Shown here one piece after another: positions 31,797-46,454 of a DNA stretch of 64,000 nt. Both the position numbers and the translations under genes were made by a program. The notes under the pieces were generated by a model that was given only the letters and a program-made list of their open reading frames with translations, made no database searches and was not told the DNA's origin. Each line of letters begins with the position of its first letter. The first letter of the stretch is position 1. Origin of the DNA: Pseudomonas sp. ATCC 13867 (lineage in GTDB: Bacteria > Pseudomonadota > Gammaproteobacteria > Pseudomonadales > Pseudomonadaceae); contig NC_020829.1 in the NCBI RefSeq assembly GCF_000349845.1, positions 4,595,001-4,659,000 of the forward strand, read 5' to 3'.

Positions 31797-31873
31797 GGCT
31801 ACATAGCTCAGTCGGTTAGAGCGCAGCATTCATAATGCTGATGTCCCAGGTTCAAGTCCCGGTGTAGCCACCA
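31797..31873 (+). tRNA. tRNA-Met (anticodon CAT), prophage attachment site
   Basis: 77-nt cloverleaf: acceptor GGCTACA with TGTAGCC, anticodon loop TTCATAA, T loop TTCAAGT, encoded ACCA. The acceptor begins with a paired G-C, so it is an elongator type. Its 3' half from 31828 is repeated perfectly at the far end of the prophage (45179), so integration leaves the gene intact. Confidence 0.97.
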
Positions 31874-31900
31874 TACAAAACAAAGGGTTAGCGAAAGCTA
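31828..31900 (+). repeat. attL: attL: 73-bp direct repeat at the tRNA-Met 3' end
   Basis: This stretch, from ATTCATAATG in the anticodon arm to GCGAAAGCTA beyond the tRNA, recurs base for base at 45179-45251. It contains the tRNA 3' half and the AAAGGGTTAGCGAAAGCTA hairpin arm after it. It marks the left boundary of the prophage. Confidence 0.93.
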
Positions 31901-31923
31901 GCCCTTTTTTGTTTTGGCCGGCA

Positions 31924-35214: not shown

Positions 35215-36429
35215 CTAGTTGCTGCGCCAGGGGCGCGCTGGGTACTCGCTGTCGGGGACGATGGTCAGTTGCGTCGCTGCGGGCTGCGCATCGGCCTGTA
35301 GTCGTTCGCTGGTGGGGGGTGGCAGCGGCGATGCGGCAACGGCTGATTGCTGCCCCGAGCGCGGATCGAGGCCGTTACGGTCGGGCAGCGTAGGATCGAA
35401 GTAGCCGTCCCTGGCGACGGTCAGGCAGAAGTCGAAGGCCGTCGCCACCTTGGTGCCCTGCTGCGTGTAGCACTGACAGGATTTACCGTCCTTCACGGTG
35501 TGTTGTGGTCGCCGGGCAACGAGGCGCGGGTCGCCGGTGGACAGGCAGTACAGCCGCGGGTGGGCAACGGGCTTGGTCAGTTCGTCGTACACCGGCGCCG
35601 AGGACGGCAAGTCCGGGACGCGAGGCTTGCGGCGTTCCAGGTACTGCGCGGGGGTGACAACCTTGGTCTCGCCATCGCCCGTGGGTTTGATCAGCGCGCC
35701 GACCGCCGAGGACACCTGATCGACCACGCCCTTGTCTGCGCCGTTCGGTGTCGTGGCGCCGGTCGCCGCGCTGGCCGGGGTGGCCGACTTGCTGCCTTCC
35801 GCGTAGCGCTCATAGGCGCGGTACACCATGAAGGCCGCGCCGATGATCACGGCCAGCGCCAGGATCATTTTCTTCGGCGGCTTGAAGGCGAAGTGGTGAT
35901 TGGCCTTGGTGCTGGTGTAAACGCCGAAGTACTTCTTATCGAGCTTGAGCGTGGTCTTGTCGGCGTCCTTGAAGCTGGTCTTCTTCTCCACCGCTTCGAT
36001 CACGGCTTCGGATTCGAAGCGCAGCAGTTGCTGACTCTTGAACACCCGCCAGTAGTGGATATGACCGTTGCACAGGCGGCGCAGATGCACGTCGATGTAG
36101 CGCGGGTCCTGGGTGACCAGATGCACTTCGTGGCCCTGATGGCGCATGATCTCGAAGCGGCTGATATGCTCCGGCGGTTTCTGCCGGGGGTCGCGGACGC
36201 CGAACCAGCCCTGGGCCTCATCCACGACGATGATCGCATCGGGTGGTAGTTCGTACCATTTGTACGGGTCGTCGAACCCGAACCACGCCGCCTGCAACTG
36301 GTCGGTCTTGAGGTCGGCCACGTTGTGGTAGTAGACGACCCGGCCTTCCCTGTGGGCCTTCTGATCGACTTCGCGGATGGTGTTGAGGGTCTTGCCGTGG
36401 CCGGGTTTGCCGGTGCGAATGTAGAGCAT
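35215..36429 (-). CDS. zot: Zot-like assembly ATPase (gpI)
   Basis: 404-aa inner-membrane ATPase that drives extrusion of filamentous virions. Walker A is GKPGHGKT (residues 7-14) and Walker B is IIVVDEAQGWF (near 66). One membrane segment (about 195-215, MILALAVIIGAAFMVYRAYE) separates the cytoplasmic domain from a Pro/Ala-rich periplasmic tail of about 190 residues. It lies 12 nt downstream of the gpVI-like gene. Confidence 0.92.
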   Translation of the reverse strand: MLYIRTGKPGHGKTLNTIREVDQKAHREGRVVYYHNVADLKTDQLQAAWFGFDDPYKWYELPPDAIIVVDEAQGWFGVRDPRQKPPEHISRFEIMRHQGHEVHLVTQDPRYIDVHLRRLCNGHIHYWRVFKSQQLLRFESEAVIEAVEKKTSFKDADKTTLKLDKKYFGVYTSTKANHHFAFKPPKKMILALAVIIGAAFMVYRAYERYAEGSKSATPASAATGATTPNGADKGVVDQVSSAVGALIKPTGDGETKVVTPAQYLERRKPRVPDLPSSAPVYDELTKPVAHPRLYCLSTGDPRLVARRPQHTVKDGKSCQCYTQQGTKVATAFDFCLTVARDGYFDPTLPDRNGLDPRSGQQSAVAASPLPPPTSERLQADAQPAATQLTIVPDSEYPARPWRSN

Positions 36430-36441
36430 GGCGCATCCCCC

Positions 36442-36771
36442 TTAGGCGTCGATGTAGTCGCGGCCCGGAGGATTCCAGACCCGCTTGCGTTGTCTGCCGG
36501 AGGCCTTATCCATGCCGGAGAGCACCATGCGGGTGACCACAGCGGCGAGGAACATGTTGATGCACACATCGAAGTTAGCGAGACCGAGTATCTGCTGAAT
36601 GGCAAGGCCCACGGAGCCCATCTTCGACTGGACGTAACTGCGCACCATATCCAGCAGCAGGTTGGAGCCGACATAAGTGACAAAGCCGACTCCGAGCGCT
36701 CGCAGAACCATCTTCACCAGCGGGCCGACGATCATGATCAGCAGCTGTACCAAGAACAGGAATTGCATCAT
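36442..36771 (-). CDS. DUF2523 minor coat protein (gpVI-like)
   Basis: 109-aa, strongly hydrophobic protein with about three membrane segments, as expected for the tip protein gpVI/DUF2523. Its start overlaps the coaA stop by 4 nt (36768-36771), and zot follows immediately. This is the standard position in Pf phages. Confidence 0.85.
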   Translation of the reverse strand: MMQFLFLVQLLIMIVGPLVKMVLRALGVGFVTYVGSNLLLDMVRSYVQSKMGSVGLAIQQILGLANFDVCINMFLAAVVTRMVLSGMDKASGRQRKRVWNPPGRDYIDA

Positions 36772-38228
36772 TCACCTCCAAAGGCGCGGCCCACGTAGAG
36801 CGCGCAGAAGACACTGGTGCCGATGAGGATCAGCACACCGAGATCGGACGCAGCGGCACACAACGGCTCATAGGTGAACGCGAAGGTCCGACCGCCGTTG
36901 GTTCGCAGAGAGAAGGTCTTGTTGGGCGGGCAACTGGCGGGCAGGAAGCGCGTGCCGCTGTTGAGGAAGGACGGGGCCTCGACTTCGAGGTCTTCGGCTA
37001 GCTGGAACTTGTCACCCTGGACGGCGGCCTCGATTTCGCCCTTGTGCTTCTCGAAGTCGCCTTGTTTCTCCACCTCGCAACGCAGCTTCTTCTGCTGCTG
37101 GACCATCGCGCAGTCGATGGCGTCGCCTGCGCACTGGAGCGGCGCGTCGCAGTCGTCGGTGCCGGAGGCTTTTCGCTCGGGCTCTTCCTCTTCTTCCTTG
37201 TCTTCCTCGCCGGGCTTGTCGCTGGCCTTGCAACCGGTGCCGGTACAGGTAGAGGACTCGCCGCCGGAGGTGCCATCGGCATTGGTCTTGCTGGTGCCGT
37301 TGGTGACGCTGGTGGTCGAGGAGCAGGCGTTGACGCCGCTGCAATTCGTCGTTGTGGTGGTGGTCGTCGTGCTGGTGGTGGAGGAACCGTCGCTGGCCGT
37401 CTGTTCGCTGACCTCGGTCTTGGTTTCGGTTTCCTTCTTGGACGGGCTGGGCTTGCCCTCTGTGCAGCCGAACTGACCGTTGACCTCGCCGCACTGCATG
37501 TTGCCCGGCTCCTTGAAGGCATCAGTGGCAAGGCAGCTGTAGTGGGTACGACCTTCGGCGTCAGTGACCTTGTTGGTGCACTCGTTGGACTTTTCGCGGG
37601 TGGGTAGCGTGGCGGGTGGAACGTTGGGCGTGGGGTCGGTATTCGGACACGCGACGCCGTTGCCCCTGTAGCGAAACACGCAGAAGCCGGAGTTCTGATC
37701 GTCACCTTCCATGAAGCGATAACAGCGGCTGGGGGCTTCGCCGGTCGAGGCATATTGGCAGGAGCCTTGGCAAAGACTTCCCGGCGGTTCGGTGCGGGTG
37801 TTCTGCAGAACAACGCCGCCTTCGCTCAGGGTGCCGATCTTGTGTTGATGCTCCACCATCTGGCCGATGGTGGGTTCGCACTTGTCCGGCTCGGGAGCTT
37901 TGCATTCGCCTGCGGTCGCGTCATACAGCTGGGGCGCGGTACAGCCGTTACCGTAGCGAACCAATTGTCCTGAATGATCAGCAGTCTTGCCGGTGGACTT
38001 GGTAAGGGTCTGGTAGTAGCAAGTACCCGAAGAGCCAGACACTGAAACCGACAGCATCGTATCTACGTACAAACTGTCGGAGCGGTTCCAGTAGTCCAGC
38101 ATCAGCTGACACGCCCCGGCGGGAGACGGGGACTTGGTGATGTTGTAGCCGTAGTACTGCCAGTAATAGTCCTCGGCCTGAGCGGTGCTCATCGTCAGTG
38201 CCAGCAGAAACAGGACCAGGGCACGCAT
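36768..38228 (-). CDS. coaA: Adsorption/attachment protein CoaA (gpIII-like)
   Basis: 486-aa virion tip protein for pilus or receptor binding. A signal peptide is visible (MRALVLFLLALTMSTAQA) and a C-terminal membrane anchor (about residues 460-480, DLGVLILIGTSVFCALYVG). The middle holds many Cys, a Ser/Thr-rich linker near residue 300 and an acidic stretch near 345 (EEDKEEEEEPE). The start at 38228 gives the signal peptide; the frame upstream lacks one. CoaA evolves fast, so receptor specificity cannot be predicted. Confidence 0.88.
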   Translation of the reverse strand: MRALVLFLLALTMSTAQAEDYYWQYYGYNITKSPSPAGACQLMLDYWNRSDSLYVDTMLSVSVSGSSGTCYYQTLTKSTGKTADHSGQLVRYGNGCTAPQLYDATAGECKAPEPDKCEPTIGQMVEHQHKIGTLSEGGVVLQNTRTEPPGSLCQGSCQYASTGEAPSRCYRFMEGDDQNSGFCVFRYRGNGVACPNTDPTPNVPPATLPTREKSNECTNKVTDAEGRTHYSCLATDAFKEPGNMQCGEVNGQFGCTEGKPSPSKKETETKTEVSEQTASDGSSTTSTTTTTTTTNCSGVNACSSTTSVTNGTSKTNADGTSGGESSTCTGTGCKASDKPGEEDKEEEEEPERKASGTDDCDAPLQCAGDAIDCAMVQQQKKLRCEVEKQGDFEKHKGEIEAAVQGDKFQLAEDLEVEAPSFLNSGTRFLPASCPPNKTFSLRTNGGRTFAFTYEPLCAAASDLGVLILIGTSVFCALYVGRAFGGE

Positions 38229-38230
38229 GC

Positions 38231-38302
38231 TCAGACCCGCCCGAAGAACACCACGGCGAATGCCAGGGTGGTGACGATGAGGACAAACCACTGCACGGAC
38301 AT
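38231..38302 (-). CDS. 23-aa hydrophobic phage peptide
   Basis: A small frame reading MSVQWFVLIVTTLAFAVVFF plus GRV, essentially one membrane segment. GGAG lies 8 nt upstream of the ATG and the stop is 2 nt before coaA, so it is well placed for expression. By size and position it could be a minor coat peptide of the gpVII/gpIX type. Confidence 0.65.
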   Translation of the reverse strand: MSVQWFVLIVTTLAFAVVFFGRV

Positions 38303-38319
38303 GGCGGGCTCTCCAGAAG

Positions 38320-38342
38320 AAGAACCCCGCCGGAGCGGGGTT
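38320..38342 (-). terminator. Terminator downstream of coaB
   Basis: AACCCCGC and GCGGGGTT pair around a 4-nt loop, followed on the minus strand by CTTCTTCTGG. Filamentous phages commonly place a partial terminator after the major coat gene so that it is made in excess. Confidence 0.7.
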
Positions 38343-38371
38343 CGGTGCTTCGGCTTTCAGGCCGGGTGGGG

Positions 38372-38614
38372 TTACAGGGCGCGGCGCATGTACTTGAACG
38401 CCGCAGCGGCGACCAGCACGGCGAACACGGCCCAGCCGATGGTGTTGGTGTCTTCACCGGCGGTGGTCAGCGCGGCGGTCGCTTCGGTCGGGACAGCGCC
38501 GTAGGCGGTGGCGGCCAGGGTGGAGCCGACAGCGGCGATACCCACCACCGTTTGGCGAGCGCGACGGCCGTAGCCTGCGGCGCGGTTTTGCAGCTGGGTT
38601 TTGAGTTGCTTCAT
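38372..38614 (-). CDS. coaB: Major coat protein CoaB (gpVIII-like)
   Basis: 80-aa precursor. A long basic signal sequence (RRARQTVVGIAAVG...) is probably cleaved near residue 39-40, leaving a helix of about 41 residues: an acidic N-terminal part (VPTEA...GEDTNT), a hydrophobic core (IGWAVFAVLVAAAAF) and a basic C-terminus (KYMRRAL) that contacts DNA. This is the coat protein pattern of filamentous phages. GAGGT precedes the ATG at 38614; the longer frame upstream is a shadow. Confidence 0.92.
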   Translation of the reverse strand: MKQLKTQLQNRAAGYGRRARQTVVGIAAVGSTLAATAYGAVPTEATAALTTAGEDTNTIGWAVFAVLVAAAAFKYMRRAL

Positions 38615-38628
38615 GGGTGTTACCTCGC

Positions 38629-38841
38629 TTACTTGAGCAGTCGTTTCAGGACCAGGAAGCCGAAGGCGATGCAGAACAGCGCGAGTACATCGCCGCGCAG
38701 TTCCGCCACCTGATCCCAGGTGAGTGCAGAGCCGAACTCGCTCTGCATTTCCTCGCGGGTGAAGACCGTCAGGGTGCCGGTGCAAATGGCGGAACCATCG
38801 GCACCGAGCGCCCAGTTGCCGTCGCAGGCGAGAAAATTCAT
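38629..38841 (-). CDS. 70-aa phage membrane protein
   Basis: Starts [13 protein letters not shown] and ends with a hydrophobic segment ([20 protein letters not shown]), so a single C-terminal membrane anchor. Its start overlaps the 28-aa gene stop (ATGA) and it precedes coaB by 14 nt. A similar small gene occurs at this position in Pf phages; its function is unknown, perhaps a minor coat component. Confidence 0.75.
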
Positions 38842-38924
38842 AGGAAGCGCGCCACGCCATCGACCCAGCCCCACAGGTAGCCGGTGGCGAGGCCCACGAC
38901 GAAGAGGGAGAGGTACTTAGTCAT
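38838..38924 (-). CDS. 28-aa phage membrane peptide
   Basis: Reads [20 protein letters not shown] followed by VDGVARFL; one membrane segment. It lies 15 nt after the ssDNA-binding gene and overlaps the next gene by 4 nt, so it is clearly part of the phage operon. Comparable in size to Pf minor coat proteins. Confidence 0.7.
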
Positions 38925-38939
38925 GGCTGTGCTCCCGGA

Positions 38940-39377
38940 TTAGCTCTTGGCCGAGTCGCCGGGTTTGTCGGCGGCGGTGGGTTTATCGGTGGTCGGCTGT
39001 TGAGTCGGGCGCTGGGCCTGCGGCTGAGCGGCGGGACGAGCGGTCGGAGTCGGTGCGCTAGCTTCTTTGCCCACGGCCAGTAGTTCGGTCAGCACTTGGG
39101 TATTGGTGGTGCGACCAAAGCGATCCTGGGTGGGGCGAACAACGCTGGCGAACTTGCAGAGCACCGGAGCGCCTTCGAAGACGATGGAATCCAACAGGGT
39201 CGGTTCGACGTTGTATTCGCTGATCTCGAAGCCCTTGGCGTTGCCGCGAGCGGTTTCCGGGATCGGGGAGATGGCCTGGACGCTGGCGAAGATCTCGCCG
39301 GACTTCGTGGAGGTGTAGGTATCGGTCTTGGTGACCCAGAGTTCGACTACGCCGCCAGTGGTTGCAAACATGTTCAT
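38940..39377 (-). CDS. Phage single-stranded DNA-binding protein (gpV-like)
   Basis: 145-aa protein that coats the viral single strand before assembly. An N-terminal OB-type beta domain (about residues 1-105) is followed by a Pro/Gln/Thr-rich tail (PTARPAAQPQAQRPTQQP) and an acidic-basic end. AAGGAG precedes the ATG. It is the first gene of the structural operon, in the Pf gene order. Confidence 0.85.
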   Translation of the reverse strand: MNMFATTGGVVELWVTKTDTYTSTKSGEIFASVQAISPIPETARGNAKGFEISEYNVEPTLLDSIVFEGAPVLCKFASVVRPTQDRFGRTTNTQVLTELLAVGKEASAPTPTARPAAQPQAQRPTQQPTTDKPTAADKPGDSAKS

Positions 39378-39746
39378 CTGAAGCTCCTTTTGCCTTTTTC
39401 GGGCATGAGTTGGCCCGCTGCTGCAATTCGGCTTGTTTGCCGTTAATTCAGCGGGGATGGATAAGTGGTCATTTGCTGCCAGTCAGAACCGCTCTAAATA
39501 GAGGGTTTCAAGTAACTGACGGGATCTACTTCAACACAAAAACAAGCACAAAAACCGTCGATAGATATTTATCAAAATGGAACCTATCGCTCTGAAACAG
39601 CAAGGTTTTTCAAGGTTTAAGTGCCCCCTGACTGATAGGAGTTGTTAATCACACCAAGGGCTCTGCCCTTGTCATCCCGCTCTCGCCGCCGAGGGCTCAG
39701 GAGCGCGGGGCGGTGGAGCTGCCCCTCACTCCCGAGCGGAGGCTAT
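39378..39746. other. Non-coding gap with hairpins, candidate phage replication origin
   Basis: 369 bp without a convincing gene. It holds a perfect hairpin CAAGGGC-TCT-GCCCTTG (39655-39671), further GC-rich inverted repeats around 39685-39725 (GGGGC...GCCCC) and an AT-rich stretch near 39530-39590 that could contain the promoter for the ssDNA-binding operon. Filamentous phages keep their origin and packaging signal in such a gap. Confidence 0.5.
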
Positions 39747-39953
39747 TCAGGGCGGGGGACGGTCAAGGGTGCGCTTCGCCCGGCGCTCCGTTTGTCCGAA
39801 CGATAGAGCGTGTTCGGACAAGCCGGTGCGGCGGCCCTGGACCTGATTGGCCCAGGTGGGGATGGTGTGGCGAGCGTGATAGCGGCCCACCAGCAGGGCG
39901 AAGACGATGAGAACGGACCAGAAGATCAGGTGCGGGATCGGGTTAGTGATCAT
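39747..39953 (-). CDS. 68-aa phage protein with one membrane segment
   Basis: Starts MITNPIPHLIFWSVLIVFAL, a single hydrophobic helix, followed by a basic tail (residues 25-68). It follows the Cys-rich 110-aa gene after 3 nt and is the last gene before the origin-like gap. Function unknown. Confidence 0.6.
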   Translation of the reverse strand: MITNPIPHLIFWSVLIVFALLVGRYHARHTIPTWANQVQGRRTGLSEHALSFGQTERRAKRTLDRPPP

Positions 39954-40443
39954 GGCTCAGCCCTCCCACTCGAACGATTCGTGGATAGGTACGAAGGGCG
40001 TGGGTCTGCCGCTGTCGTAGACAACGTGCCAGTACTTCGGCGGACGGCGCGCGGGCATGTGTTTGTCGCAGGTAAAACCCCGTTCCACCCGGTAGGTCGA
40101 GTGGATCGAGCGCCACACTCCAGCGACCTTCGCCATCACGATAACTACGGTGAAGACGCGCGTAGGGCGGCATTCGGTGCATCGTGTGGATCGGCAGGGA
40201 CTGGATTTCGCCAGTTCGCGACGGGACCAGCAGACAGAGCAGTCGCAGTCCAACGGATGCGGTCGGTGCAGGTACTTGCTCGGCAGCATCGGCGGGCACC
40301 TCCCCTTCGAAGCTCTGTTGAAGGCGGAAGACCAGTTCGGCGTTCAGGGAGCGAAGAGAAGCTTCGGCAGCTTGCTCAACCTGAGAGCGCAGAGCCGGAG
40401 GCATGCGCAGCTTGAACTGAGAGAAGGACCGGGCGTCATTCAT
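39943..40443 (-). CDS. Arc-family DNA-binding protein (3' end uncertain)
   Basis: The first 55 or so residues (MNDARSFSQFKLRMPPALRS...SLRSLNAELVFRLQQSFE) are a clear Arc/Mnt ribbon-helix-helix domain. Beyond about residue 70 the frame stays open to 39943 but its composition becomes Arg/Pro/Leu-rich and it runs across the 110-aa gene, as a shadow frame would. Either the real stop was lost by frameshift or the genes overlap. The start overlaps the excisionase gene by 8 nt. A transcriptional regulator of the phage is likely. Confidence 0.55.
   Translation of the reverse strand: MNDARSFSQFKLRMPPALRSQVEQAAEASLRSLNAELVFRLQQSFEGEVPADAAEQVPAPTASVGLRLLCLLVPSRTGEIQSLPIHTMHRMPPYARLHRSYRDGEGRWSVALDPLDLPGGTGFYLRQTHARAPSAEVLARCLRQRQTHALRTYPRIVRVGGLSHDH
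39957..40289 (-). CDS. 110-aa Cys-rich Pf-type hypothetical protein
   Basis: The N-terminus has a CDCSVC cluster (Cys15, 17, 20) and a further CRSTRCTEC, suggesting a small metal site; the C-terminus reads KYWHVVYDSG. Its composition looks genuine rather than random. It overlaps completely the distal part of the Arc-like frame, so at most one of the two frames is used in this stretch, or they are truly overlapping genes. Role unknown. Confidence 0.6.
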   Translation of the reverse strand: MLPSKYLHRPHPLDCDCSVCWSRRELAKSSPCRSTRCTECRPTRVFTVVIVMAKVAGVWRSIHSTYRVERGFTCDKHMPARRPPKYWHVVYDSGRPTPFVPIHESFEWEG

Positions 40444-40708
40444 CGTCGTAATCCCCCTGGCAGAAGATCGACTTCCCCCGGTCGAGGTCGCGGCGGATTT
40501 TGTGAAGGTTGATGACGCGGCGGCGGCCGATCTTGGCGGTCGGCACGGTCTTGGTTTCGACCCAACCGCGCACCACGTCTTCGGTGATCTCTTCCAGGCC
40601 CAGCATCTGAGCGAATACCGCCTGTGAGCAAAACGGCGCGGAGCGGAAATCCGTAACCTTTTCGACAGCTCCCGTGACCGTGAACCCCACAATTCCAGAC
40701 TCTTCCAT
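40436..40708 (-). CDS. Pf-type excisionase/HTH regulator (XisF-like)
   Basis: 90-aa protein with a winged HTH near residues 38-75 (EITEDVVRGWVETKTVPTAKI, then GRRRVINLHKIRRDLDRG) ending GDYDDE, which resembles the Pf4 excisionase XisF4 as I remember it. Such proteins promote excision and early phage transcription. It is the first minus-strand gene, divergent from the repressor genes, with operator-like palindromes between them. Confidence 0.78.
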   Translation of the reverse strand: MEESGIVGFTVTGAVEKVTDFRSAPFCSQAVFAQMLGLEEITEDVVRGWVETKTVPTAKIGRRRVINLHKIRRDLDRGKSIFCQGDYDDE

Positions 40709-40823: not shown

Positions 40824-41096
40824 ATGAGTGAGGGAATTACAGAGAGGGGCCTTCAGTTACTGGAAATGGCCAGTATTAAGGCATTAGCTGACGCCGGAGA
40901 GACGGACTATGTTCGTTGGCAGAATATAAAGCGCGGAAGGTCCAGGTTAGGTGCCGACGAAATTGAGATATTGGGCAGGGTCTATCCACATTATCGTTGG
41001 TGGTTGATGACCGGCGAGGTACGCCTGGATATGCACCAAACCAGCCCAGCCTACGATTTAGCCAATGCAAGCTTGCACGAACCCAGCGCGGGATAG
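40824..41096 (+). CDS. Pf-type phage repressor, copy 1
   Basis: 90-aa protein of the small Pf repressor type: a compact HTH region (ALADAGETDYVRWQNIKRGR), then EIEILGRVYPHYRWWLMTGE and a QTSPAYD tail. It is divergent from the excisionase gene, the position of the Pf4 immunity repressor. It is paralogous to the next gene: HYRWWLMTGE matches HYALWLISGR, and SPAYDLA matches SPEYDEA. Confidence 0.78.
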   Translation: MSEGITERGLQLLEMASIKALADAGETDYVRWQNIKRGRSRLGADEIEILGRVYPHYRWWLMTGEVRLDMHQTSPAYDLANASLHEPSAG

Positions 41097-41150
41097 AGCT
41101 GACAAGGAAGGCAGCACTGCGCTGGTTTAGCCGATAGGACATACCATGAG

Positions 41151-41420
41151 ATGGACTCGGTACGAAATAGAGCGCTCCAACTGATCCGAACGCTTGGTCC
41201 TAAGCATCTCAGTGAGCTCGGCGGAAAGAACTACGACCGCTGGAGAAATATCAGCAGTGGGAAGATCCGGATTAGTACTGAGGAGGTCGGCATCTTGGCC
41301 GACGCATATCCTCATTACGCGCTTTGGCTAATCTCGGGACGGACTGAGCCAGAGCATGGCCATCGCAGCCCTGAATATGACGAAGCTGATCGAAACTTGG
41401 CCGGACACGACGCGGGATAG
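41151..41420 (+). CDS. Pf-type phage repressor, copy 2
   Basis: 89-aa paralogue of the preceding gene (SELGGKNYDRWRNISSGKIR, EEVGILADAYPHYALWLISG, HRSPEYDEADRNLAGHDAG), 54 nt downstream and in the same orientation. The two differ at most positions of the HTH region, so they probably read different operators. One could be the immunity repressor and the other an acquired or diverged copy. Confidence 0.72.
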   Translation: MDSVRNRALQLIRTLGPKHLSELGGKNYDRWRNISSGKIRISTEEVGILADAYPHYALWLISGRTEPEHGHRSPEYDEADRNLAGHDAG

Positions 41421-41654
41421 AGATTACTCAGACGGTAGCTAGGCGCTGGTTCGCCCGAGAGAAATCCGCCAGGAAGGAATGAAGCAAAAGCACAGGCAAG
41501 CCTGCTACAGCTAGTAAGTCGGTGAAGCGCATGACCAGGGAATAGGTACCGCTCTCCGCATTTCAGTTTTTTCCGATTGACGCTGGATGCCGCGAGCATA
41601 TGGTCTGGCTAAGCCCCTATTTGCCGGACTCAATCAACTCTCCGCTACAAGGAC

Positions 41655-42076
41655 ATGAATCAGATGAAAACCATACTGACCAGCCTGCCATCCTGAGCTG
41701 TGCCACCCTCGCATCCGCCGAAGAGAAAACCGCCCTCACCGAAGCCGCCGAGGCGATGAAACCCATTATCGAAGTCCCCGCGAACTACGTTCAGAAAAGC
41801 ATCATGCAAAGCCTTGCCAACGGGAAAGGCCCGATGGCAGAAGGCTCCAGGAAAAACCTAGAAATGCAGGCTCAACGGAAGAAGGAAGCTAACCGAGGTG
41901 TGCGCAGGTCTATGAAGGAATGTATCAAACCAGGGAATGTCATCGATGATGATGTTAAAGAATGCACTGAAGGTTTACGCGAGAAAACATGGCAGCGCAG
42001 GCTTATTCATCTTCGGAAGACTGGACAAATGCCTCATACCACCTACTTGCACGAAATATCGCGAACGTTGCGCTAA
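41655..42076 (+). pseudogene. Secreted protein gene with an early frameshift
   Basis: AAGGA precedes the ATG at 41655. Its frame starts MNQMKTILTSLP and then stops; one frame over, from about 41680, the sequence continues PAILSCATLASAEEKTALTEA and stays open to 42076. Joined, they give a typical signal peptide plus a small periplasmic protein with two Cys (KECIKPGNVIDDDVKECTEGL). A single-base indel near 41680 is the simplest reading, either a real mutation or a sequencing error. The 3' end overlaps the convergent membrane-protein gene by 74 nt. Confidence 0.5.
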
Positions 42077-42566
42077 ACACAAGAACAATAGAGTACATAA
42101 AAATCAGGTACCCAAAAAACCAAAAAACCCTGTTCCCGCAATGCACTATCTGATAGTACAAACTTGGAAGACCTGGAATAGTAAATTGCAATGACTTGAA
42201 GGTCAGAGCCACAAGCAAGGCAAGTGCTTGCATAACTATAAAATGCACGAAGGCCGAAACCAGCGACATAAATGGAGAAACTTTTGCCGAGCTTTTCTTA
42301 GCTATAAATCGACTAAACCCAGAGTCCATCCCTAGAAACACTGCAAACCCGGCCAAAGTAAATCCCAAGATGGTAGGAATTGAAGATATAACAGTATCCC
42401 ACCACCCCAAGCCGGACCAAGCCCCGTAGTTCAATACCGTCAAGGCAAAAGCTAGCCAAAAGTAGAAGGAAGAAAATAGCGCGCGGAATCCGCCATATCC
42501 TTCCCAGTACTTACCCCAGACCTTTCTAACGCCTTCGTAGTCTTTTCTTACCGAAAAGAAAATCAT
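42003..42566 (-). CDS. 187-aa four-TM membrane protein of the prophage cargo operon
   Basis: I do not recognise the family. The protein has about four hydrophobic segments: around residues 29-50, 58-80, 100-125 and 148-172; the N-terminus is basic (VRKDYEGVRKVWGKYW) and the C-terminus acidic (QSSEDE). It starts 2 nt after the DUF4747 stop, with its TGAGGT ribosome site inside that gene's end, so the two are translationally coupled. The DNA is far lower in GC than the chromosome. A membrane effector role is a guess from context. Confidence 0.75.
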   Translation of the reverse strand: MIFFSVRKDYEGVRKVWGKYWEGYGGFRALFSSFYFWLAFALTVLNYGAWSGLGWWDTVISSIPTILGFTLAGFAVFLGMDSGFSRFIAKKSSAKVSPFMSLVSAFVHFIVMQALALLVALTFKSLQFTIPGLPSLYYQIVHCGNRVFWFFGYLIFMYSIVLVFSATFAIFRASRWYEAFVQSSEDE

Positions 42567-42568
42567 AT

Positions 42569-43450
42569 TTACCTCAATATCTCTCTATTCACCTCATCAA
42601 CCTTCTCATAAAACGCATCAAACTCAGACATTAAGTTTGGGTTGTATTTCGCAGTCACATGCAACGGAGTGTCCTTGGTTGAAAGAAACTGTTTAACATT
42701 ATCCTCATCCTTGCCCTCAACCATAACATACCCATTCTCTTCTGCCACCCCCGCCAGGGCCCTAACATCTTCATCGATTATCAAACCAACGTTGTTTGCC
42801 TCCAAAAACTCCATTCGTTGAGTTTTCGCATTCATCTTATTTAGCCGCTCCAGGATATCTTCCTCGAGGTCCTCATGATCATCTGGATTTGGCCGATCAA
42901 TCTCAAGCTTAAGCTTTGAAATTCTTTTCAAAGAAAGCATTACTTCAAGGCTATTGGGGTCAGGCTGTACAGTTATGCTCAGCTGACCAAACTCAGCAAA
43001 CTCAGGCCGTGAAAAGATCTTCAAGAAGAAGTTCTTTACCAGATTGGGCGAAAGACTGTGCTTCGGCTTTCCACTAATGAAATAGAAACGATGCCCTTTC
43101 GGATAAAAAATATACTGAAATCGTTTGAAGTGCGGCTTCAAGTGCTCGGGTATCACTAACTCAGCCACATCTTCATTAGTAGCCTCATCCATATCCCTAA
43201 GATTAAACCAAGCCTCTGCCGCATCTAATTTCAAAAATTTATACAACTCCCCTCGAACACCATCCATCGGGTTATCTTTATTGAGATATCGACAAGAACC
43301 CAAAAGCAGAGCCTCATCTCCTCGAATCTTTGCATCAAATTTCCCATTAGCCATAAGTCGCAGCATCTCAACATACTTCAACGGAGTATGTGGCTGGAGA
43401 ACAACATTTAATGCACTGATATGAATAGCGGAGGTGCGAACTCTAGGCAT
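42569..43450 (-). CDS. DUF4747 family protein
   Basis: 293 aa, within the usual length of DUF4747 proteins. The N-terminus (VRTSAIHISALNVVLQPHTPLKYVEML), the KRFQYIFYPKGHRFYF strand and the IDRPNPDDHEDLEE motif agree with family members as I remember them. No enzymatic motif is known. It lies between the 194-aa gene (39 nt upstream) and the membrane protein gene (2 nt downstream) in low-GC DNA, inside prophage cargo. A part in phage defence is inference from location and partners. Confidence 0.75.
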   Translation of the reverse strand: MPRVRTSAIHISALNVVLQPHTPLKYVEMLRLMANGKFDAKIRGDEALLLGSCRYLNKDNPMDGVRGELYKFLKLDAAEAWFNLRDMDEATNEDVAELVIPEHLKPHFKRFQYIFYPKGHRFYFISGKPKHSLSPNLVKNFFLKIFSRPEFAEFGQLSITVQPDPNSLEVMLSLKRISKLKLEIDRPNPDDHEDLEEDILERLNKMNAKTQRMEFLEANNVGLIIDEDVRALAGVAEENGYVMVEGKDEDNVKQFLSTKDTPLHVTAKYNPNLMSEFDAFYEKVDEVNREILR

Positions 43451-43489
43451 AGAACATCCCCATAAAAAAAGTTAAAGAAACCAATATCT

Positions 43490-44074
43490 TCAAACGTGAG
43501 GCCAAAGCGACTCAACATACGCCAACTCCGCATCGATCAAAGGCGCACCAATTGATGCCGCTGACACAAAAAGCTTAGAGTTCCTGACATCCAAGACCCC
43601 AAATTTTATATCAGGATATTCGGCCAGCGTAATCCCCATCAAGGATCCAACAATATCAACCCTCAACTTACTTAGCGGATCCGCCTTAAGATATAGTTTT
43701 ATCACATGAGGTTCACCGTTAATAAGAAGCCCCAGCTCAGGGTTAACAGAGACAGAAAAATCGTTATAATTATAAAAATTGCGCGGCGGATCAAACCACT
43801 CTAACTCTTTTCTTCCCCACCATTTCCTATAGCCCTCGACCACCTCGGAATAGTTTTCAACTTTATGAGGAGGCAATGCAGCCAATATATCCTGAAGTGA
43901 ATCCTTACCTTCCCCCTCCGAATGAATCTCGACGATCCCATCCCTAAATCTTTTATAATAGTCTGTAGCCGGCTGATAGGCGTCTCTATTTTTAATCTCC
44001 CGCACCTTAGTCGCTTTGGGTGTTCCCGCCTTAGAAACCAAATCAACCAAATCTGTCAAGGATAGAACAGGCAT
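43490..44074 (-). CDS. 194-aa unknown protein of the prophage cargo operon
   Basis: Not recognised. Soluble, no signal or membrane segment; rich in aromatic residues in the middle (YRKWWGRKELEWFDPPRNFYNYNDF), followed by an alternating strand pattern (FSVSVNPELGLLINGEPHVIKLYLK) of beta type, ending in AYVESLWPHV. The ATG at 44074 follows AGGAGA; an upstream in-frame TTG is less likely. It lies between the Mrr-like gene (49 nt upstream) and DUF4747, all on the minus strand and low in GC. Confidence 0.72.
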   Translation of the reverse strand: MPVLSLTDLVDLVSKAGTPKATKVREIKNRDAYQPATDYYKRFRDGIVEIHSEGEGKDSLQDILAALPPHKVENYSEVVEGYRKWWGRKELEWFDPPRNFYNYNDFSVSVNPELGLLINGEPHVIKLYLKADPLSKLRVDIVGSLMGITLAEYPDIKFGVLDVRNSKLFVSAASIGAPLIDAELAYVESLWPHV

Positions 44075-44123
44075 ATTAAATATTCTCCTATCGTGCGCTG
44101 ACAAAAAACGACACCATCCCCAA

Positions 44124-44981
44124 TCACGCTATATTTCTAACACCCCGACAAACAGGAAAATTAGTACACCCCCAAAACTCAGAACCTATATTTGAGCCGC
44201 GTTTAGCTTTCCTAATAACCATGTGCTCATTACACACAGGGCAACGGGGTGCTGAGGACAGATCAGTTGCTTTGTCGGTATTCCTGCTCTCTGGAGCAGC
44301 AGGTGTGGCTGTCGATCGGTTAGAAATCCAACGTTTAAGCAGCGCCCCATCAACCAACTGGATATTGCGCCCTTCCGCAAACGCCTTAGCTTCTGCGGTG
44401 TATCTGCCCGAACTGACAACAAAACCTCCCGCAGCCCCTTCCGCAGCCATAACACCAAAAAACTCGCGGATCACCGTGACGCCAACATTAATGGCTTTCC
44501 ACTGTTTGCACTGAACCAGATACTTGTCTGTTCCCAGGTGCAATACGAGGTCAACGCCGCCATCCGGCCCGTTGCCGCCCTTTTCGATAACGGTGAAGCC
44601 CTTGCGGCGGAAGGTCTCGCCCACCAGCTGCTCAAACTCGCGCCAGCTGATGCCATCAATGGTTTGCCCAGACTCTCTCGCATTCGCCACGTTTGCGCGC
44701 AACCGCTTACGTTCAGCCCTGGCAAGCACAGCGCCGATGGCGCCGATTACGAATACCGCAGGCAGCACAAACTGGCCGAAAAAGGCAAAGGTGCGGATAA
44801 GCTGACCAACAACAGACTGCCCCATCTGATGCAGATCCTTGGGAACTTCGGGTTGGCTGTTGGCGATAGGGTGAAGAACGAGCCAACTGCCCAGGGCAAT
44901 GAGCAGGCTTACCCACCAGGGCAAGCGGCTGGCAATCTCTATGAGGTCCTCGATGAGCGAGGTTCTGCGGCGACGAGCCAT
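44124..44981 (-). CDS. Membrane-anchored Mrr-type nuclease with C-terminal zinc finger
   Basis: 285 aa. Two membrane segments lie near the N-terminus (about residues 22-40 and 66-88). A restriction-endonuclease-like Mrr_cat domain follows (about 110-215): GGVDLVLHLG with the catalytic Asp and YLVQCKQWK giving the Q-x-K motif. The C-terminus carries a topoisomerase-type four-Cys finger (CPVC...CTNFPVC). Mrr-like enzymes cut modified or foreign DNA. The ATG at 44981 follows GGGAG. GC is near chromosomal, unlike the three genes after it, so it may have been added separately. Confidence 0.85.
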   Translation of the reverse strand: MARRRRTSLIEDLIEIASRLPWWVSLLIALGSWLVLHPIANSQPEVPKDLHQMGQSVVGQLIRTFAFFGQFVLPAVFVIGAIGAVLARAERKRLRANVANARESGQTIDGISWREFEQLVGETFRRKGFTVIEKGGNGPDGGVDLVLHLGTDKYLVQCKQWKAINVGVTVIREFFGVMAAEGAAGGFVVSSGRYTAEAKAFAEGRNIQLVDGALLKRWISNRSTATPAAPESRNTDKATDLSSAPRCPVCNEHMVIRKAKRGSNIGSEFWGCTNFPVCRGVRNIA

Positions 44982-45178
44982 CCCTGTCTCCCAAATACGC
45001 ATCCATTCATGGCCAGAGGCCATACAGGGAAGCTAGCGCGAGACGCTAGTACCAGTAAAGACTCTAGGGTGACTACATAAGGCCAATTGTCAGAAACAGC
45101 CTGTTGAAGTGAGGTTTTGTCGCCTTTGAAAGGCCCGGTTTACAAGGCTTCGGGGTAGCGCGGGGTAGCTCTCATGCG

Positions 45179-45251
45179 ATTCATAATGCTGATGTCCCAG
45201 GTTCAAGTCCCGGTGTAGCCACCATACAAAACAAAGGGTTAGCGAAAGCTA
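45179..45251 (+). repeat. attR: attR: 73-bp direct repeat
   Basis: Identical to 31828-31900 over 73 bp, containing the tRNA-Met 3' half without its 5' half. It marks the right boundary of the prophage. Confidence 0.93.
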
Positions 45252-45274
45252 ACCCTTTGTGCTTTCTGGGTAGT

Positions 45275-45667: not shown

Positions 45668-46087
45668 TCAGCTACTCCAAGGATCAATTAGCACCACTCC
45701 GTAACTCTCGAAGTGTCGGACGTTTCGCGTAGCAACCTGCGCCCCATGCAGTTTGGCGATTGCAGCAATCTGCCCATCCGCCATATCGGCAATCCTTCCC
45801 TTGGCCTCACTCTCTGCTGCCAGCTCAGCGTAATGCACCGCTGCATCCGCATCGAAGGGCAGGATCCTGCCGGCGAAGTCCTCTTCGAACATGGCAATGG
45901 CCAGATCCTGCAGAGCTTGCCTGCGTTTCCCCTTCGGCATCCTGGCAATGCCATAAAGGATCTCAGCCACGGTGATCGAGCTGATAAGTAAATCCTGAGC
46001 GGGTTGAGCATCAATCCAAGCAACCACAGCCGGATCTGGCTTGGCCCGCATCAGCTCCGACAGGACATTAGTGTCGAGCAGGATCAT
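45668..46087 (-). CDS. PIN-domain toxin (VapC/FitB-like)
   Basis: 139-aa PIN-domain RNase. The acidic active-site residues are visible: MILLDTNVLSELM (Asp5), the Glu in ITVAEILYGI, and Asp in ADMADGQIAA. The plasmid-stabilisation subtype with MPKGKRR in the middle resembles FitB. Its start overlaps the antitoxin stop by 4 nt, so the pair is co-translated. Located just outside attR. Confidence 0.88.
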   Translation of the reverse strand: MILLDTNVLSELMRAKPDPAVVAWIDAQPAQDLLISSITVAEILYGIARMPKGKRRQALQDLAIAMFEEDFAGRILPFDADAAVHYAELAAESEAKGRIADMADGQIAAIAKLHGAQVATRNVRHFESYGVVLIDPWSS

Positions 46088-46329
46088 TCGTCGAAGTCCG
46101 CAGCCCGAGCCTTAGTCTTGCGAGCCGGCAGCTCGATATCAGCTCCACCGACAGATGCGAAGCGAGCATGAATCCGACTTCCCAAGCCCCTCCTTTTCTC
46201 GTCCCGAGAGAGCGCCTGAGCAAGGATCACACGGACCTCCTCTTCCATCGAGCGGCCATGGTTCGCAGCGACCACTCGGAGCTTGGCCTTGAGGTCTTCG
46301 TCTAGGTTTCTAATCGTGATGCTGGCCAT
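46084..46329 (-). CDS. Ribbon-helix-helix antitoxin (FitA/VapB-like)
   Basis: 81-aa antitoxin with an N-terminal RHH domain (MASITIRNLDEDLKAKLRVV...NHGRSMEEEVR) and a C-terminal tail that should wrap the PIN toxin. The ATG at 46329 is chosen because it starts the RHH strand; upstream codons in frame are unrelated. It precedes and overlaps the toxin gene. Confidence 0.88.
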   Translation of the reverse strand: MASITIRNLDEDLKAKLRVVAANHGRSMEEEVRVILAQALSRDEKRRGLGSRIHARFASVGGADIELPARKTKARAADFDE

Positions 46330-46454
46330 GACATTCTCCAGTGCAATCAATGAAATCACTGACATCATACGGGAGATTTCCGGGTCGTGTGAGCGGTCAG
46401 AGATACATGACAGGCTCCGATGGCTGGGCGATACACAACATCGCCTTAGCCTCG

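What the first reader, a model, noticed from the sequence alone, without database searches (positions are those of the whole stretch)
42003..44981. Candidate undescribed system: Mrr nuclease, 194-aa unknown, DUF4747 and four-TM protein in prophage cargo
Four minus-strand genes with gaps of 49, 39 and 2 nt lie in the accessory slot of a Pf-type prophage. The last three are strongly AT-rich relative to everything around and are not part of the Pf core. A cytosolic unknown, a DUF4747 protein and a coupled four-TM membrane protein look like sensor, adaptor and membrane effector, and a membrane-anchored Mrr nuclease with a zinc finger is adjacent. Prophage cargo slots often hold anti-phage systems. 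The defence function is inference; I know of no named system with this exact set, but could not search.
Basis: partly seen in the sequence, partly recalled or inferred. Interest (0 to 1): 0.78.

Follow-up and report, generated by a model that had tools for sequence, protein, structure and literature searches.

The report
RexAB-type phage-exclusion pair in Pf prophage
A filamentous prophage in a bacterial chromosome carries a swappable three-gene cassette: two of the genes look like a relative of phage lambda's classic RexAB system that shuts down cells attacked by other phages, and the third belongs to a widespread, still unnamed protein family built like a DNA-cutting enzyme.

Summary
The four genes, gaps, AT-richness and prophage setting are as described, but they are not one undescribed system. 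(1) DUF4747 + four-TM form a strict pair: 30 of 32 DUF4747 viral loci have the four-TM gene beside them (both misses at contig ends) and 36 of 38 four-TM loci have DUF4747 upstream. The DUF4747 model's best solved match is lambda RexA; no sequence link was found. In 13 of 34 loci an HTH gene lies upstream, recalling lambda's cI-rexA-rexB order. This is a RexAB-type pair, a known kind ('DUF4747/CarolAnn' in a 2026 paper). (2) Mrr belongs to the Pf backbone: a sibling prophage keeps it but has other genes in place of 42000-44142, the other three genes. (3) The 194-aa protein is a separate family (460 relatives) with a Cas4/RecB/Dna2-like PD-(D/E)XK fold but, by eye, no acid at the usual motif III place; its neighbours elsewhere include many defence genes (hand-picked set). 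It joins the pair here and perhaps in Metapseudomonas otitidis. The defence role is inferred, not tested.

The parts
42569..43450 (-). DUF4747 protein, 293 aa: RexA-type cytosolic sensor/activator (DNA-binding by analogy)
42003..42566 (-). Four-TM membrane protein, 187 aa: RexB-type effector
   Evidence: four hydrophobic segments (three by the stricter count); phrog_20580 1.9e-28; beside DUF4747 in 30 of 32 viral loci, DUF4747 upstream of it in 36 of 38, the window's own prophage counted in both
43490..44074 (-). 194-aa protein with Cas4/RecB/Dna2-like PD-(D/E)XK fold, altered motif III by eye; unnamed family
42000..44142 (.). cargo cassette: the stretch without nucleotide similarity to the sibling prophage L110, holding the three AT-rich genes
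   Evidence: blastn: window 41150-41999 and 44143-45182 match L110 at 88% and 82%, nothing between; GC 0.43-0.44
44124..44981 (-). Mrr_cat + Top1 zinc-ribbon protein with hydrophobic N-terminus, 285 aa; prophage backbone gene next to the att site, not part of the cassette
   Evidence: (phrog_33422 1.3e-128)
31828..31914 (.). attachment-site repeat, overlapping the 3' part of tRNA-Met
45179..45265 (.). attachment-site repeat, other end of the prophage
35215..40708 (-). Pf core: Zot-like protein, minor head protein, TspB-like protein, ssDNA-binding protein, PflM (DUF5447)
40824..41420 (+). two small genes (90 and 89 aa) that resemble one another and read like Cro-type repressors, cassette-distal border of the slot
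   Evidence: no Pfam hit; the repressor reading is by eye; similar genes at the same place in other Pf-type loci

Best explanation
The operative unit is the gene pair at 42003-43450, a RexAB-type exclusion module. The DUF4747 protein (RexA-type) sits in the cytosol as a DNA-binding dimer and senses a product of infection by a foreign phage (replication or recombination intermediates, or a phage protein). Once triggered it activates the closely coupled four-TM protein (RexB-type), which permeabilises the inner membrane, collapses energy supply, stops growth and aborts the infection. The pair rides with a separate 194-aa PD-(D/E)XK-fold gene in a replaceable cassette between a Pf-backbone Mrr gene and the repressor-like genes of a filamentous prophage. 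Shown here: the pair's conservation, the RexA-like fold of the model, four hydrophobic segments, the lambda-like gene order in many relatives, the cassette borders. Inferred from studied relatives: DNA binding, dimer, triggering, membrane permeabilisation, anti-phage effect.
Against: Profile comparison found no sequence similarity of the DUF4747 set to RexA (Prob 0.2, E 0.3), CarolAnn gp44 or Butters gp30, nor of the four-TM set to RexB or CarolAnn gp43; these references had 1-4 rows, so this is weak. The RexA structural match is distant (Foldseek TM 0.25, 9% identity). In the window the pair is not beside the repressor-like genes, and 21 of 34 DUF4747 loci show no HTH gene in the 900 nt upstream by eye (two of them start at the contig edge). 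In Butters the roles of the two proteins are reported to be reversed, so the effector assignment is not certain. No function was tested.
Confidence: 0.8

Rival explanations
1. A three-component variant: the 194-aa PD-(D/E)XK-fold protein is a functional partner of the RexAB-type pair, for example a DNA-end or branched-DNA binding sensor or a nuclease arm triggered together with the membrane effector.
For: It lies in the same unmatched block (42000-44142), with similar GC and GC3, same strand, 39 nt upstream. Proteins named Metapseudomonas otitidis that match the three genes at 81%, 84% and 79% share the same longest-contig length of 69156 (P0002, P0122, P0172), which suggests that the trio travels as a unit.
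Against: Only the window's own prophage among 32 DUF4747 and 38 four-TM viral loci holds a 194-aa gene within the fetched flanks; none of 58 genome loci of the 194-aa family shows DUF4747 in its flanks; in the window's family 4 of 398 genomes hold each and only the window's genome is in both lists. Adjacency in M. otitidis was not seen, only equal contig lengths.
Confidence: 0.2
2. Two independent defence genes share one cassette: a RexAB-type pair plus a stand-alone 194-aa defence protein, collected side by side as in a small defence island.
For: The 194-aa gene has no conserved partner over its loci and stands beside varied defence genes: 351 PADLOC models at E<=1e-10 among 65 neighbours, the 25 listed including Qat, Shedu, Druantia, Dpd, type I and II restriction and PsyrT, against 19 models (17 of them E1-E2) for 39 host ORFs of the window.
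Against: No assay. The 65 neighbours were picked by eye, favouring longer and recognisable proteins; models are redundant; the tool gives numbers of models, not of neighbours with a hit; the 39-ORF control is one chromosome region, includes antisense ORFs and is not matched.
Confidence: 0.55
3. One four-gene system including Mrr.
For: Same strand, 49 nt gap, adjacent.
Against: In L110/L187 (one contig) an 84%-identical Mrr sits at the same end of a Pf-type prophage next to genes with Nmad2, MazG_C and weak UDG domains, and in L188 a 65% Mrr stands near an AAA ATPase; nucleotide similarity ends at the cassette borders; Mrr GC is 0.55, not 0.43-0.44.
Confidence: 0.05
4. The pair serves prophage regulation (lysis-lysogeny bias, as reported for lambda RexA) rather than defence.
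For: RexA is reported to bias the lambda switch (passages); many DUF4747 pairs sit after repressor genes.
Against: Here the pair is in a cargo slot, on the other strand from the repressor-like genes, and the slot in relatives holds defence-type genes.
Confidence: 0.12

Closest known systems
Lambda RexA/RexB exclusion system
   Same: RexA-like fold of the first protein, four-TM partner encoded directly after it, prophage-borne; many relatives of the pair follow a CI-like gene
   Different: no detectable sequence similarity; in the window the pair sits in Pf cargo, not after the repressor; function untested
P. putida RexABpp (PP_5643-5644), PMC12894663 (abstract, three sections read)
   Same: Pseudomonas prophage, RexA-like DNA-binding protein + 4-TM protein, both needed for protection
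   Different: its sequences could not be fetched, so homology to the window pair was not tested; the paper is not among the five that hold the word DUF4747
CarolAnn gp44/gp43 and Sbash gp30/gp31; 'DUF4747/CarolAnn prophage system' (PMC6426606, PMC6426596, PMC13373217; passages)
   Same: cytosolic + 4-TM pair with a reported weak DUF4747 match; named among immune operons in 2026
   Different: hhalign gave no match to CarolAnn gp44/gp43 here; their RexA-like proteins are longer (370-372 aa)
Cas4/RecB/Dna2/MGME1-type PD-(D/E)XK nucleases, incl. Argonaute-associated ACE1
   Same: fold of the 194-aa protein over its whole length
   Different: by eye no acid at the expected motif III place (K125-L-Y127-L-K129); the window protein has no cysteine; no family model hits it
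KKP module of Pf prophages (PMC11341870; start of abstract seen)
   Same: anti-phage genes in a Pf prophage
   Different: kinase-kinase-phosphatase, a different set of proteins

Membership tests
RexAB-type exclusion system | adjacent pair: soluble protein followed by four-TM membrane protein | tested here: met
   conserved in 30 of 32 and 36 of 38 loci
RexAB-type exclusion system | soluble partner has the RexA fold | tested here: met
RexAB-type exclusion system | sequence homology to RexA and RexB | tested here: inconclusive
   hhalign found none, phmmer/hmmsearch against PDB sequences did not list RexA; reference profiles were tiny
RexAB-type exclusion system | gene order next to a CI-like repressor in a prophage | tested here: inconclusive
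   not so in the window; HTH gene upstream in 13 of 34 DUF4747 loci
RexAB-type exclusion system | DNA binding, membrane permeabilisation, phage exclusion, expression in the lysogen | not testable with these tools
   needs experiments
DUF4747 (PF15931) | match above Pfam's curated cut-off | tested here: met
   212 bits against 27
PD-(D/E)XK nucleases of Cas4/RecB/Dna2 type (194-aa protein) | fold | tested here: met
PD-(D/E)XK nucleases of Cas4/RecB/Dna2 type (194-aa protein) | catalytic D ... (D/E)xK residues | tested here: inconclusive
   conserved residues are H50, N110-P111-E112, K125/Y127/K129, D161, R163, E182 (numbering without the start Met); no D/E two residues before the conserved Lys; motif placed by eye from recalled family knowledge, no structure-based residue map was available
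single four-gene system with Mrr | Mrr co-occurs with the other three genes | tested here: not met
   Mrr with other cargo in 2 of 2 other viral loci found (nucleotide borders for one of them)

The most novel reading that the evidence does not exclude
The 194-aa protein founds an undescribed, widespread anti-phage family: a PD-(D/E)XK core of Cas4/RecB type in which the metal-binding acid of motif III has been replaced by a strongly conserved K-x-Y-x-K, with N-P-E and D-x-R as a new conserved site, so that it recognises or cuts phage DNA ends by a non-canonical chemistry or acts as a pure sensor; in this cassette it works as a third, DNA-end-reading component of a RexAB-type membrane system.
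Probability: 0.25. Interest if true: 0.7.

Novelty: new member of a known kind. Interest (0 to 1): 0.45.

Why it matters
It puts the oldest known abortive-infection system (RexAB) into a filamentous phage: a virus that leaves its host alive would protect that host, and itself, with a membrane-acting exclusion pair. It ties the Pfam family DUF4747 to RexA by a structural comparison and lists 48 distinct viral contigs with the pair, the window's own included, for finding what triggers RexA-type sensors, a long-open question. It also shows a replaceable slot in Pf-type prophages, and points to an unnamed PD-(D/E)XK-fold family found beside many defence genes.

Tried and rejected
Sequence links to RexA/RexB: hhalign of A2 against four RexA proteins and of A3 against four RexB proteins, and against CarolAnn gp44/gp43 and Butters gp30, gave nothing; phmmer and hmmsearch against PDB sequences gave no RexA. 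The link rests on fold, pairing and gene order.

Named-system search: no PADLOC model matched the 194-aa, DUF4747 or four-TM proteins at E<=1. tblastn of DUF4747 and of the 194-aa protein against 50,697 phage records: no match (records very near the window's genome may be left out there). Plasmids: two distant DUF4747 records, none for the 194-aa protein.

Conserved neighbours of the 194-aa gene: clustering within 4.5 kb gave no partner family; the 7- and 4-locus clusters overlap the gene itself in high-GC genomes (spurious ORFs), the rest are in 3 loci. Three loci share a DUF7946 protein and one has a Shedu SduA; not enough for a system. For the neighbour PADLOC scan, one search kept 44 of 58 genome loci (high-GC ones dropped) and listed 160 proteins; I passed 65 of them, from 42 loci, picked by eye with a lean to longer and recognisable ones, so it is not an unbiased sample. 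The control of 39 window ORFs contains antisense ORFs. The 99 slot clusters contain backbone, IS, integrase-like and doubtful ORFs besides cargo. MscL, Tmemb_185A and other weak hits of the four-TM protein are below cut-offs and were rejected. Promoter and terminator scans of the region gave no more sites than shuffles. Literature: DUF4747 is in 5 held papers (passages; the Salmonella one, only lists a gene); none of the 10 listed of 177 papers of a RexAB/Pf search held the word RexAB. ACE1 literature: nothing useful.

The organism: a 5,696,307-base single-contig genome. I recall, unverified, that this is the size of Pseudomonas denitrificans ATCC 13867.

Full report
What is there. The four genes are real and placed as stated. 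They lie at one end of a Pf-type prophage bounded by an 87-nt repeat, 31828-31914 and 45179-45265, that overlaps a tRNA-Met gene. The core is recognisable: Zot-like protein, minor head protein, ssDNA-binding protein, PflM. IMG/VR holds what is evidently the same prophage as a 13,378-base contig (100% identity for five queries).

The cassette. Comparing the prophage with a sibling, IMG/VR 2660238598 (L110), nucleotide similarity runs 41150-41999 (88%) and 44143-45182 (82%) and blastn finds nothing in between. The unmatched stretch, 42000-44142, holds the four-TM, DUF4747 and 194-aa genes (and the last codons of Mrr); in L110 the place is taken by ORFs of which three were scanned and hit Nmad2, MazG_C and, weakly, UDG. 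A second sibling (L111) breaks at 41992. So the three AT-rich genes (GC 0.43-0.44) form one replaceable block and Mrr is backbone: an 84% Mrr in L187 (same contig as L110) and a 65% Mrr in L188 stand by other cargo.

The slot. Of 80 Pf-type loci fetched with the ssDNA-binding protein (the best 80 of 164), 58 gave a repressor-like gene; with L188 added, 43 loci had at least 1500 bases beyond it. Their proteins of 120 aa or more fall in 99 clusters, the window's own and some backbone, IS and doubtful ORFs included; one representative of each was scanned: 263 PADLOC models match at E<=1e-10, the strongest of the 25 listed being Old 2.2e-236, HEC-01A 6.3e-162 and AbiLi 2.5e-90. The models are redundant (AAA ATPases hit many), and the tool does not count proteins with a hit. 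As a rough control 39 ORFs of the window outside the prophage, antisense ORFs among them, match 19 models, 17 of them E1-E2. Published work finds anti-phage genes in Pf prophages, the KKP module (PMC11341870; start of abstract).

The pair. DUF4747 relatives: 49 proteins, 32 viral loci. A profile of the four-TM protein hits beside the DUF4747 gene in 30 of 32; the misses L085 and L094 end at the contig edge. From the other side, 36 of 38 four-TM viral loci have DUF4747 upstream; the misses, L211 and L212, share one sequence type. The two sets overlap in 18 contigs, so the pair is on 48 distinct viral contigs, the window's own included; several are near-copies, so independent events are fewer. 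In genomes it is rare: 4 of 398 in the family, 1 of 369 in the class, the window's own genome counted in each. The most distant of the family hits, L004, has no four-TM profile hit but a 200-aa hydrophobic protein follows directly.

Gene order. In 13 of 34 DUF4747 loci (L002, L064-L072, L077, L083, L084) an HTH gene lies upstream within 900 nt on the same strand, in several with a small ORF between. Ten of the 13 were scanned: nine hit a CI-repressor or S24 domain, seven above Pfam's cut-off; L072 has only sub-threshold HTH hits. In other loci the upstream genes are others, some of them tail-gene-like by eye. In the window the pair follows the 194-aa gene.

How it most likely works. From RexAB studies (PMC11077077, PMC12894663, PMC6426596, PMC6426606; sections or passages): a DNA-binding RexA-type dimer senses infection and triggers a RexB-type membrane protein, ending in membrane damage and growth arrest. 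Butters gp30/31 works the other way round by report. I give 0.8 to a RexAB-type exclusion function of the window pair; all of the function is inferred.

Does it belong to the pair? Against: (one seen co-occurrence, the window itself). For: the shared cassette and the M. otitidis proteins with equal contig length. I take an independent defence gene in the same cassette as likelier (0.55) than a third subunit (0.2).

Verdict. A RexAB-type pair, new member of a known kind, in a Pf cassette with a separate unnamed PD-(D/E)XK-fold gene.

Noticed in passing
window 41600-42076 (+): ORF similar by eye to a 113-aa gene of a sibling Pf-type prophage with a signal-peptide-like start (L111 3820-4161); in the window the start region and the conserved part lie in different frames, so the copy looks broken; its 3' end overlaps the four-TM gene on the other strand.
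   Followed up: partly
window 45668-46344 (-): PIN-domain toxin and FitA-like RHH antitoxin pair just outside the prophage end.
   Followed up: no
L110 1619-4007: Pf-type cargo with Nmad2, MazG_C and a weak UDG-like protein: a possible nucleotide-modification-linked cassette in the same slot.
   Followed up: partly
L108 902-5868 and L174: Three-gene Pf cargo with an ORC-CDC6-like protein (884 aa, weak kinase hit below cut-off), kept in two prophages.
   Followed up: no
L014, L022, L024, L030: 194-aa family gene near a DUF7946/DUF7947 protein in three loci; in L030 beside a Shedu SduA nuclease and in L022 also a T5orf172 protein.
   Followed up: partly
L057, L058, L098, L099: Two adjacent genes of the 194-aa family in Polyangium loci; distant versions in IMG/VR L098 and L099 have some conserved residues changed.
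   Followed up: no
L211, L212: Four-TM gene without a detectable DUF4747 gene upstream, although another locus with a similar match, L214, has one; possibly a broken copy.
   Followed up: no
L086 6956-7856: DUF4747 gene split over two ORFs in one prophage; the four-TM gene follows.
   Followed up: no
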